Shown: positions 5,861 to 7,091 of the stretch, one piece after another | Numbering within the stretch: the stretch's first letter is position 1 | How the letters are laid out: each line of letters opens with the position of its first letter | DNA from: Candidatus Pelagibacter sp. | GTDB taxonomy: Bacteria > Pseudomonadota > Alphaproteobacteria > Pelagibacterales > Pelagibacteraceae | NCBI GenBank assembly: GCA_028101445.1 | Contig: JAOHKR010000027.1 | Span: forward strand, 1 to 7,091 | DNA: 7,091 nucleotides | Direction of reading: 5' to 3' | Position numbers and translations under genes: made by a program | Notes under the pieces: model-generated | The model's input: the letters and a program-made list of their open reading frames with translations, nothing else | The model's database searches: none | What the model was told of the DNA's origin: nothing

Positions 5861-6790
5861 ATGAATATTTTGGGAATAGGAAACGCAATAGTTGATGTTA
5901 TTTGTAAGGTAAATGATGAGTTTCTTACTAAAAATGGTTTAGCAAAGAGCAACATGAAATTAATAGATGAAATAGAGTTTAAAAAATTACTAGGTAATCT
6001 TAAAATTGAAGAAACAGTTTCAGGCGGATCTGTGGCCAACTCAATTGTTGGCTTATCACAATTAGGTAATAAGGTTGGTTTTATTGGAAAAGTAAGTGAT
6101 GATGAACTAGGACAAAAATATGAGCAAGGTCTAAAAAAAGAAAATGTTGAATATTTTTATACTAAAAAGAAAGAAAGTTTACCTACTGGAACATGCCTTA
6201 TACTAATCACTCCAGATTCAGAGCGAACAATGTGTACTTTTCTTGGAACGGCAGGAAAAATTAACAAAACAGACATAGATGCTCAAGCTATTAAGAATAG
6301 TAAAATAACTTTTCTTGAAGGATATTTGTGGGATGAGGGAGAACCTAAAGAAGCATTCAATGAAGCTATTAAATATTCAAATAAAATAGCCATGTCATTA
6401 TCAGATAAGTTTTGCGTAGATCGTCATAAAAAGAATTTTCTAGATTTGGTAAAAAATAAATTAGATATTACTTTTGCCAATGAACAAGAAATACTAGAGT
6501 TAATCGATGCTACATCATTTAATGAAGTTATTTCATTTGGTAAAAAAATAAATAAAACTCTTGTAATAACTAGATCAGATAAAGGTAGTGTAGTTATTAA
6601 TCAAAATGAAGTAGTAGAATGTAAAAGTCAAAAAGATCTTAAAATTGTAGATTTAACAGGAGCTGGAGACTTATTTGCAGCAGGTTTTCTTCATGGCTAT
6701 ATTAATAAAATGACGCTGCAAGAGAACTTAAATAAGGGAACTGAAATGGCTTCCAAAGTAATCCAAAAAATTGGTGCAAGATTAGACTAA
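5861..6790 (+). CDS. PfkB-family sugar kinase, adenosine kinase type
   Basis: Probably phosphorylates adenosine to AMP with ATP (purine salvage, also clearing adenosine from the S-adenosylhomocysteine cycle); cytosolic. The 309 residues fit the ribokinase/PfkB fold. GIGNAIVDV (5-13) is the first strand with the substrate-binding Asp. SGGSVANS (54-61) is the di-glycine hinge, close to the GGSxxN of adenosine kinases. NEQE (207-210) is the NxxE Mg/ATP motif, and DLTGAGDLFAAGFL (264-277) is the anion hole, with D270 the catalytic base. Leu265 stands where Ser/Thr is usual in the PfkB signature. LEGYLWD (152-158), SDKFCVDR (181-188) and the IGAR ending match what I recall of alphaproteobacterial adenosine kinases, so I prefer that over ribokinase or fructokinase, without proof of substrate. 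The ATG at 5861 has no visible Shine-Dalgarno and follows nth by 3 bases. It appears to be the last gene of the operon. Confidence 0.88.
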   Translation: MNILGIGNAIVDVICKVNDEFLTKNGLAKSNMKLIDEIEFKKLLGNLKIEETVSGGSVANSIVGLSQLGNKVGFIGKVSDDELGQKYEQGLKKENVEYFYTKKKESLPTGTCLILITPDSERTMCTFLGTAGKINKTDIDAQAIKNSKITFLEGYLWDEGEPKEAFNEAIKYSNKIAMSLSDKFCVDRHKKNFLDLVKNKLDITFANEQEILELIDATSFNEVISFGKKINKTLVITRSDKGSVVINQNEVVECKSQKDLKIVDLTGAGDLFAAGFLHGYINKMTLQENLNKGTEMASKVIQKIGARLD

Positions 6791-6803: not shown

Positions 6804-6817
6804 ATTACTAATTACTA
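6804..6817. repeat. Tandem 7-base repeat ATTACTA x2
   Basis: Two perfect adjacent copies of ATTACTA lie just after the kinase stop, in the 36-base convergent gap and against the terminator stem. They are probably chance in such AT-rich DNA and are recorded only for completeness. Confidence 0.4.
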
Positions 6818-6844
6818 AAAGTTAAATTAACTTTTTTTTCTTTT
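6817..6844 (+). terminator. Probable AT-rich intrinsic terminator of the dnaK-to-kinase transcript
   Basis: AAAAGTT (6817-6823) pairs with AACTTTT (6829-6835) around a 5-base loop. The plus strand then continues into T4 C T4 (6836-6844), as expected for a Rho-independent terminator. The stem has 7 base pairs but only one G:C, so it would be weak alone. It lies 26 bases past the kinase stop. On the minus strand the same hairpin contains the stop codon of the arfA-like gene but is not followed by a clear U run. Confidence 0.5.
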
Positions 6845-6934
6845 AAAACTTCCTTTACCTTTTTTTGGTTTAACAACTCGTTTTCTGTATTTTTTTGTGA
6901 AAAGATCTTTTGCTATTTTATTTCTCTTTTTCAA
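6827..6934 (-). CDS. arfA: Minimal ArfA-like alternative ribosome-rescue factor, 35 residues
   Basis: ArfA recruits release factor RF2 to ribosomes stalled on mRNA without a stop codon; its basic tail lies in the empty mRNA channel. The minus-strand frame starts at TTG (6934-6932) and encodes MKKRNKIAKDLFTKK then YRKRVVKPKKGKGSFKRKKS. Residues 5-34 align without gaps to my recollection of E. coli ArfA residues 14-43: N-x-I, then FRxRVxKxKKGKGS(Y/F)xRK, about 15 identities in 30. The protein lacks the first 9 or so E. coli residues and the C-terminal extension that E. coli removes by mRNA cleavage. AAGAAGGG (6950-6943) is a Shine-Dalgarno 8 bases before the TTG, and TTGA overlaps the upstream response-regulator stop, which supports the start. 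An alternative is an unrelated basic peptide, but the KKGKGS context makes ArfA the best call. Confidence 0.65.
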   Translation of the reverse strand: MKKRNKIAKDLFTKKYRKRVVKPKKGKGSFKRKKS

Positions 6935-7091
6935 AGGTAATACCCTTCTTTATTATTAAGAATAAATTTTAAGTCAGAAAATTTATCATTGATTTTTTTT
7001 CTTAATCTATAAATATGTGTTTCTACAGTGTGGGTATCCGCTTCAGATGAATAATTCCAGACCAAAGATAGAATTTTATTTTTTGAAATAG
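6931..7091 (-). CDS. OmpR/PhoB-family response regulator, C-terminal part of winged-helix DNA-binding domain; 5' end outside window
   Basis: Transcription factor of a two-component system; only the last 52 residues are inside the window. They read as the second half of an OmpR/PhoB winged helix. SKNKILSLVWNYSSEAD (2-18) leads into the recognition helix THTVETHIYRLRKKI (19-33), then a linker and the wing FILNNKEGYYL (42-52), where the usual form is (F/L)I.T..G.GY.L. The THTVETHIYRLR wording resembles alphaproteobacterial regulators of this class. The receiver domain and any partner kinase lie beyond base 7091, so the signal and targets cannot be named. Its TGA (6933-6931) overlaps the TTG start of the arfA-like gene by 4 bases, so the two are very likely co-transcribed and translationally coupled. 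Confidence 0.9.
   Translation of the reverse strand, partial: ISKNKILSLVWNYSSEADTHTVETHIYRLRKKINDKFSDLKFILNNKEGYYL
6943..6950 (-). promoter_or_regulatory. Shine-Dalgarno of the arfA-like gene
   Basis: On the minus strand AAGAAGGG lies inside the last response-regulator codons (encoding Lys-Glu-Gly), 8 bases before the TTG start at 6934. Its purine-rich core and spacing support initiation at a TTG that would otherwise be doubtful. Confidence 0.55.

What the first reader, a model, noticed from the sequence alone, without database searches (positions are those of the whole stretch)
6827..6934. A 35-residue ArfA-like ribosome-rescue gene, shorter than the classic family
The minus-strand microgene carries the ArfA core (RKRVVKPKKGKGSFKRK). 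It ends just past it, about where E. coli ArfA is cut down to its active form by nonstop mRNA processing. So this genome may encode the processed form directly, on a start codon (TTG) and at a length that gene callers usually skip. ArfA is best known from gamma- and betaproteobacteria, so a minimal version in a SAR11-like genome would extend the family. The missing N-terminal residues raise the question of how it contacts RF2.
Basis: partly seen in the sequence, partly recalled or inferred. Interest (0 to 1): 0.72.

Follow-up and report, generated by a model that had tools for sequence, protein, structure and literature searches.

The report
Minimal ArfA ribosome-rescue gene in SAR11
A 35-residue gene in an abundant ocean bacterium (SAR11) is a real, conserved, very short relative of ArfA, a protein that frees ribosomes stuck on broken messages; databases already carry such proteins under that name, but this kind lacks the parts by which the textbook ArfA is regulated and is thought to switch on its partner.

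Summary
The ORF is real and ArfA-like. It matches Pfam PF03889 just above the curated cut-off (25.9 vs 25.5 bits) and aligns without gaps to E. coli ArfA residues 13-42. A matching ORF lies in 80 of 80 SAR11 loci fetched by the neighbouring kinase, under purifying selection (pN/pS 0.21 vs 0.74 for column shuffles). Its start overlaps the stop of an upstream regulator gene in 74 of 78 loci. Of 247 genomes of the order, 159 match, SmpB is in 216, and none shows a third RF-1-domain protein, so ArfB was not detected.

The protein ends near E. coli residue 44, about ten short of the processed form, and starts near residue 10. No in-gene hairpin exceeds chance. Positions equivalent to Ala18, Leu19 and Leu24 are Lys, Asp and Lys, so RF2 recruitment looks conserved while RF2 activation must differ or be lost. 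Databases already hold relatives, one named ArfA from Pelagibacter, yet a 2024 survey reported arfA in 0 of 2,376 Alphaproteobacteria. Marine phage contigs carry similar mini-ArfA genes.

The parts
6827..6934 (-). mini-ArfA coding sequence: TTG start 6932-6934, TAA stop 6827-6829, 35 aa
6848..6865 (-). codons for KKGKGS (window residues 24-29; E. coli ArfA 33-38), the mRNA-channel motif, invariant in 81 of 81 sequences
   Evidence: channel role from PMC5378476 (passages)
6872..6889 (-). codons for YRKRVV (window residues 16-21; E. coli 25-30): equivalent of Phe25 and of the strand that recruits RF2
   Evidence: alignment; role from PMC8012679 (passages)
6931..7091 (-). 3' end of the upstream regulator gene (Trans_reg_C winged helix; runs off the window); its TGA stop (6931-6933) overlaps the mini-ArfA start, the two genes sharing 4 nt
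5861..6790 (+). convergent kinase-like gene (GIGNAIVDV...GAGD) used as the synteny anchor; the name kinase is recalled from motifs, no family search was run on it
6817..6835 (.). perfect 9-bp inverted repeat AAAAGTTAA/TTAACTTTT spanning the mini-ArfA stop codon, followed by a T run on the + strand; perhaps the kinase terminator. The terminator scan, which requires G-C pairs, found none

Best explanation
The gene encodes a minimal ArfA that backs up tmRNA-SmpB in SAR11. Inferred mechanism: the KKGKGSFKRK tail enters the empty mRNA channel of a ribosome that has run off a broken message, and the aromatic residue plus strand (YRKRVV) recruits RF2, whose GGQ domain then releases the nascent chain. 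Because the protein lacks the E. coli residue 1-9 segment and the Ala18/Leu19/Leu24 patch, RF2 opening must be driven by a different, smaller N-terminal element. Because it lacks the degradable tail and an in-gene hairpin, its supply is probably not switched by tmRNA as in E. coli; its level is more likely set together with the upstream regulator gene, whose stop it overlaps. Shown here: coding, conservation, synteny, the family match, retained and missing residues; and in relatives RF2 with its switch-loop Trp, tmRNA, SmpB, and no ArfB detected. Inferred: ribosome binding, RF2 use, peptide release, regulation, backup role.
For: PF03889 above cut-off; 15 of 15 chosen SAR11 members match PF03889 at E <= 0.01; 8 of 8 SAR11 genomes match, 4 over the cut-off. 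Ungapped match to ArfA residues 13-42 of ribosome-ArfA structures. ORF in 80 of 80 loci. Purifying selection. Invariant in 81 of 81: N14, L20, KKGKGS, R41 (E. coli numbering); position 25 always Tyr or Phe. RF2 above cut-off in 6 of 6 genomes tested, all six with IGWG in the switch loop, one aligned to E. coli RF2; Trp319 is the ArfA contact (PMC5378476 passages). SmpB in 216 of 247, alpha tmRNA in 18 of 18 tested. No genome of 247 has more than two RF-1-domain matches, while 32 of 115 class-level genomes have three or more. Start overlaps the regulator stop in 74 of 78.
Against: No functional data. The Pfam match covers only profile positions 23-41 of 44 and clears the cut-off by 0.4 bits; NCBIfam gives no match. 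The Ala18 position, where Thr abolishes E. coli ArfA activity, is Lys in 75 and Arg in 4 of 81; Ala18, Leu19 and Leu24 are kept in 0 of 81. 88 of 247 genomes show no match, some perhaps incomplete, but the gene is cleanly absent between regulator and kinase in G011, G013, G019, G021, G032 and G104, so it is dispensable. Lack of a third RF-1-domain protein is not special to SAR11: 83 of 115 class-level genomes show two or fewer, and my search's sensitivity for ArfB was not measured; PMC11633108 reports arfB in 2,022 of 2,376 Alphaproteobacteria. Apart from ArfA and the two release factors, the closest relative's genome (G005) was not tested, and the window's own genome is not held.
Confidence: 0.72

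Rival explanations
1. It binds the empty mRNA channel and recruits RF2 (or only occupies the A site) but does not trigger release, acting instead as a ribosome-parking, protective or regulatory peptide.
For: Recruitment and channel positions are kept, activation positions are not; E. coli ArfA(A18T) recruits RF2 without activating it (PMC8012679 and PMC5378476 passages).
Against: A similar short form is kept across SAR11 loci and in many marine viral contigs, and no ArfB was detected in 247 genomes to do the release otherwise.
Confidence: 0.15
2. It recruits RF1 as well as RF2, like the Francisella factor (name ArfT recalled), since the patch that explains RF2 specificity is altered.
For: Leu19 and Leu24, part of the patch that touches RF2 Trp319, are absent in 81 of 81. 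PMC6299226, of which I saw title and start of abstract in a listing, reports a mechanism that can recruit RF1 or RF2.
Against: The aromatic at position 25 and the switch-loop Trp of RF2 are both kept. The Francisella factor itself was not compared here.
Confidence: 0.08
3. A basic nucleic-acid-binding or ribosomal micro-protein that resembles ArfA by chance in its Lys/Gly-rich tail.
For: The protein is Lys/Arg-rich and the Pfam match rests on 19 residues.
Against: Ungapped match over 30 residues to ArfA only (6 of 6 PDB hits), N14, L20 and the aromatic 25 conserved outside the basic tail, and other proteins named ArfA that keep an N-P-I-A..L-R-T-P-x-F spacing.
Confidence: 0.04
4. A chance open reading frame or a by-product of the overlapping regulator gene.
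For: It overlaps the regulator's stop and has a TTG start.
Against: ORF in 80 of 80 loci, pN/pS 0.21, a frame different from the regulator's.
Confidence: 0.01

Closest known systems
E. coli ArfA (PF03889; PDB 5mgp, 5u9f, 5h5u, 7oj0)
   Same: Ungapped alignment over residues 13-42; KKGKGS and R41 identical; aromatic at 25; RF2 with switch-loop Trp in the related genomes tested
   Different: The window protein lacks residues 1-9 and everything after about 44; Ala18, Leu19, Leu24, Glu30 are Lys, Asp, Lys, Val; no KH motif (0 of 81); in-gene folding no stronger than chance (z < -2 in 1 of 81); start overlaps an upstream regulator gene
Pelagiphage HTVC027P gp30 (QGZ17811, MN698241), called ArfA in PMC12753301
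   Same: NPVAKEVRTPKYK..IIKPKKGRGSFKR core, the same marine variant
   Different: 58 residues with a longer N-terminus; below the Pfam cut-off (20.2 vs 25.5 bits); a phage gene that overlaps the small-terminase gene; 'hypothetical protein' in its record
'Alternative ribosome rescue factor ArfA [Candidatus Pelagibacter sp.]' (P0067) and '[Alphaproteobacteria bacterium]' MAG proteins (P0123, P0126, P0128-P0132)
   Same: Same family, 36-52 residues
   Different: Names given by the sources only; the five of these MAG proteins that I printed (P0123, P0128-P0131) have a ...RTPTFRQR+xRPKKGRGSYSR core
BrfA (Bacillus) and the Francisella factor of PMC6299226, other RF-recruiting rescue peptides
   Same: RF-dependent rescue factors; BrfA's N-terminal contacts also differ from E. 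coli ArfA's (PMC8012679 passages)
   Different: The review calls the KH motif the only outstanding similarity of BrfA and ArfA, and it is absent here; neither factor's sequence was compared directly

Membership tests
ArfA (PF03889) | Score above the curated Pfam cut-off | tested here: met
   25.9 vs 25.5 bits; marginal. In 8 SAR11 genomes 8 match and 4 are over the cut-off
ArfA (PF03889) | Basic KGKGS-type tail for the mRNA channel | tested here: met
   KKGKGS and R41 in 81 of 81
ArfA (PF03889) | Phe25-type aromatic and strand for RF2 recruitment | tested here: met
   Tyr 65, Phe 16 of 81 at position 25; Ile/Val at 29 in 73 of 81; by sequence only
ArfA (PF03889) | N-terminal minidomain with Ala18/Leu19/Leu24 that activates RF2 | tested here: not met
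   0 of 81 keep Ala18, Leu19 or Leu24; residues 1-9 absent in the window protein, role. Known from E. coli; its conservation in other ArfA proteins was not tested
ArfA (PF03889) | Expression from non-stop mRNA (in-gene hairpin) and unstable hydrophobic tail; a regulatory trait of E. coli arfA, not needed for activity | tested here: not met
   Tail absent; in-gene folding z < -2 in 1 of 81
ArfA (PF03889) | Partner RF2 with switch-loop Trp in the same genome | tested here: met
   6 of 6 related genomes; the window's own genome is not held
ArfA (PF03889) | RF2-dependent peptide release on truncated mRNA | not testable with these tools
   needs an in vitro release assay
ArfB | GGQ-bearing RF-1 domain | tested here: not met
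   35 aa without GGQ
BrfA | KH motif in the channel tail | tested here: not met
   0 of 81

The most novel reading that the evidence does not exclude
SAR11 and marine phages share a distinct minimal ArfA class. It recruits RF2 with the conserved half of ArfA but opens it by a route that does not use the Ala18/Leu19/Leu24 minidomain. It is made constitutively and coupled to a regulator rather than through tmRNA-controlled non-stop mRNA, and it stands in for ArfB as the tmRNA backup in the ocean's most abundant bacteria.
Probability: 0.35. Interest if true: 0.7.

Novelty: new variant of a known kind. Interest (0 to 1): 0.52.

Why it matters
It would move ArfA beyond the reported Gammaproteobacteria, some Betaproteobacteria and ten B. 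subtilis-group species into SAR11, and suggest what backs up trans-translation there if ArfB is truly absent. It would also give a natural minimal ArfA that separates RF2 recruitment from RF2 activation, and point to phages supplying their own rescue factor.

Tried and rejected
Chance ORF: rejected by synteny and selection. In-gene hairpin or terminator like E. coli arfA: not found. The inverted repeat at 6817-6835 lies over the stop, not before it, and is not in the sequence printed for the closest relative L001; its conservation in the other loci was not counted. Phage hits by tblastn with the 35-mer: none; with a 47-aa phage-contig protein, one weak hit (E = 5, half the query). Low-complexity masking may be the reason; a degenerate-DNA search did find relatives. 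Tree of the mini-ArfA itself to ask whether phage or host came first: not attempted, 30 residues cannot resolve it. Structure prediction: not run, a 35-residue peptide without the ribosome would say little. PF03889 matches in seven class-level genomes of 3.6-6.4 Mb: only L215 of these seven shows the K(K/R)G(K/R)G(S/T) motif, and it is the one below the cut-off; the others were left as doubtful. Presence of ArfA against SmpB per genome was not cross-tabulated: rows without a match are cut at 20 and completeness is not told. L015 and L124 dropped out of the kinase tree because no ORF met my motif rule. The regulator was not found by motif in 3 of 81 loci. Only 30 of the 80 viral loci were translated.

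Full report
OBSERVATION. The window is a SAR11-type chromosomal segment whose main plus-strand ORFs look like GrpE, DnaK, DnaJ, DapB, Nth and a PfkB-type kinase (names recalled from the translations; no family search was run on them). The ORF at 6827-6934 (minus) is as described: TTG start, 35 residues, RKRVVKPKKGKGSFKRK core. Pfam gives ArfA PF03889, 25.9 bits against a cut-off of 25.5, E = 6.7e-06, covering residues 16-34. NCBIfam gives nothing for it. phmmer against PDB sequences lists six distinct sequences, all labelled ArfA; the three alignments printed are ungapped over query 4-33. The chain 5h5u_3 (72 aa) shows the match at residues 13-42, which I use as E. coli numbering.

CONSERVATION. 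The neighbouring kinase brought in 80 SAR11 loci (best 80 of 110 confirmed). All 80 carry the mini-ArfA-like ORF on the opposite strand, most directly beyond the kinase stop; L018, L019, L026, L050, L073 and L080 have it further off. Over codons 5-33 the 81 DNA sequences (80 plus the window) are all different and encode 68 different core proteins. pN/pS is 0.207 against a mean of 0.74 (sd 0.14, minimum 0.54) in 30 column shuffles, and variability by codon position is 0.095, 0.094, 0.292. With starts chosen by a rule that prefers ATG near the aligned start, lengths run from 34 to 47 residues, most often 39 (34 of 81) or 35 (22 of 81), and starts are ATG 67, TTG 7, GTG 7.

GENE ARRANGEMENT. Upstream on the same strand lies a regulator with a Trans_reg_C winged helix. 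In the two relatives scanned whole (L001, L002) Pfam finds no receiver domain. A script found the regulator by motif in 78 of 81 loci. In 74 of these the mini-ArfA start lies before the end of the regulator's stop codon (overlap of 1 to 23 nt); in the other 4 it lies 20, 54, 687 and 1136 nt beyond it. This suggests translational coupling, which is inference.

DISTRIBUTION. A profile of 15 SAR11 members finds 159 of 247 genomes of the order of G001 (a Pelagibacteraceae genome) at E <= 0.001. Three of these (G026, G062, G093) are weak, 4e-4 to 8e-4; the others are 4e-11 or better. Completeness is not told, so absences mix real loss with missing sequence. At the syntenic site, G011, G019, G021, G032 and G104 have regulator and kinase back to back, and G013 has them 35 bp apart, with no ArfA; none of the six has a match elsewhere. 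In a kinase tree of 100 rows these six absences fall in three places within the clade of 84 present and 6 absent. The whole tree needs 4 changes, well-supported branches force only 2, and support is SH-aLRT alone with 49 of 97 inner branches open. That fits an ancestral gene lost more than once without proving it. In that tree G009 and G015 count as present although their copy lies elsewhere, and G026 and G062 as absent despite the weak matches. G019 is 1,308,759 bp, the size I recall for Pelagibacter ubique HTCC1062; the genome itself is unnamed. PF03889 in a class-level draw gives 10 of 385, three of them (G001, G009, G015) already known from the order.

RESCUE CONTEXT. PF00472 (RF-1 domain) gives at most two matches in each of 247 genomes of the order, and at least one in 244. 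In six genomes searched with the RF2 model (G001, G009, G019, G021, G023 and G005, the last not in the 247) the two matches are RF2, above its cut-off, and a weaker one that reads as RF1 (the RF1 name is recalled from motifs). In a class-level draw 32 of 115 genomes have three or more matches by my count of the printed rows, so the search can see further RF-1-domain proteins; but 83 of 115 have two or fewer, the extra ones were not individually identified as ArfB, and the sensitivity for ArfB was not measured. PMC11633108 reports arfB in 2,022 of 2,376 Alphaproteobacteria. So: no ArfB was detected in this order, and that is not unique to it. SmpB is found in 216 of 247 and alpha-type tmRNA in 18 of 18 tested. 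None of this could be tested in the window's own genome. RF2 of all six genomes, with or without ArfA, keeps IGWG in the switch loop. The one aligned to solved RF2 also keeps the SPF motif and the Phe that I count as 217.

ANATOMY AGAINST E. COLI. Taking the ungapped alignment, the window protein spans E. coli 10-44. Kept in 81 of 81: N14, L20, KKGKGS 33-38, R41; Lys31 in 77; aromatic 25 in all (Tyr 65, Phe 16). Changed: Ala18 is Lys in 75 and Arg in 4, Leu19 is Asp or Glu in 75, Leu24 is Lys or Arg in all, Glu30 is Val, Ile or Phe in all. In the E. coli structures residues 31-48 lie in the mRNA tunnel, Leu19/Leu24/Phe25 touch RF2 Trp319, Ala18 packs in the N-terminal minidomain against Ile11 and C1914, and A18T binds RF2 but does not release (PMC5378476, passages; PMC8012679, passages). 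Hence recruitment looks conserved and activation does not. The review says processed ArfA lacks 17-18 of 72 residues and that only 46-48 residues could be modelled, so ending at about 44 need not bar activity.

REGULATION. Folding of the last 75 nt of the gene is no stronger than dinucleotide shuffles (mean z 0.47, z < -2 in 1 of 81; window z 0.42). The stretch across the stop likewise (mean z 0.47, 1 of 81; window z -0.29). With no hydrophobic tail either, the E. coli scheme of non-stop arfA mRNA controlled by tmRNA is not seen here.

PHAGES. In none of the 80 fetched stretches does a motif of the host regulator or kinase occur. Of 20 neighbour ORFs given to PHROGs, 15 have a match (E limits 1e-3 and 1e-5). 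Named ones include clamp loader on L156, L170 and L204, terminase and integrase on L137, endolysin on L131. Of the 80, 30 were translated; many share a core like N-P-(I/V)-A-K-(D/E)-(L/V)-R-T-P-K-Y. HTVC027P gp30, named ArfA in PMC12753301 (passages), has the same core and its record gives HTCC1062 as host.

NOVELTY. Databases already know these proteins: P0067 is 'alternative ribosome rescue factor ArfA [Candidatus Pelagibacter sp.]', P0059 (35 aa, 73 contigs) has a JGI name, most of the 120 listed of 546 have none, and MAG proteins are named ArfA in Alphaproteobacteria. In print, PMC11633108 (passages) reports arfA in 0 of 2,376 Alphaproteobacteria by nhmmer. Searches of the held library combining ArfA, ribosome rescue or alternative ribosome-rescue factor with Pelagibacter, SAR11, Alphaproteobacteria, marine, phage or bacteriophage listed one relevant paper, PMC12753301 on a SAR11 phage ArfA. 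I saw nothing on a SAR11 host ArfA in those listings; the other papers listed were not read for it, and most subscription papers and all preprints are outside that library. I rate it a new variant of a known kind.

Noticed in passing
L127-L206 (viral contigs), e.g. L156, L170, L204 at 3001: Marine viral contigs commonly carry mini-ArfA genes; on L156, L170 and L204 the gene directly follows a clamp-loader gene, and on L170 a second clamp-loader gene comes after it.
   Followed up: partly
L219 15768-15944 (HTVC027P gp30) and L108 (G019): A phage of HTCC1062 carries ArfA, while a genome of HTCC1062's recalled size (1,308,759 bp) lacks ArfA at the syntenic site and elsewhere: a phage may bring its own rescue factor.
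   Followed up: partly
window 6817-6835: Perfect 9-bp inverted repeat over the mini-ArfA stop codon with a T run on the + strand; possible terminator of the kinase gene, reaching into the Lys codons of mini-ArfA.
   Followed up: partly
window 6931-7091; L001 4030-4659; L002 4036-4626: The upstream regulator has a winged helix but no Pfam receiver domain in the two full-length relatives scanned; an atypical regulator lies next to the rescue gene.
   Followed up: no
L208 (G009), L209 (G015): Two SAR11 genomes keep mini-ArfA away from the usual kinase site, in a 70-residue open frame, about 1.5 and 3.4 kb beyond the kinase.
   Followed up: no
L215 (G529, 5.5 Mb) and P0123, P0128-P0131: Another short ArfA type in alphaproteobacterial genomes or MAGs, typically NPIA(K/R)ALRTPTFRQRKxRPKKGRGSYSR; where the stretch is present it also lacks Ala18.
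   Followed up: partly
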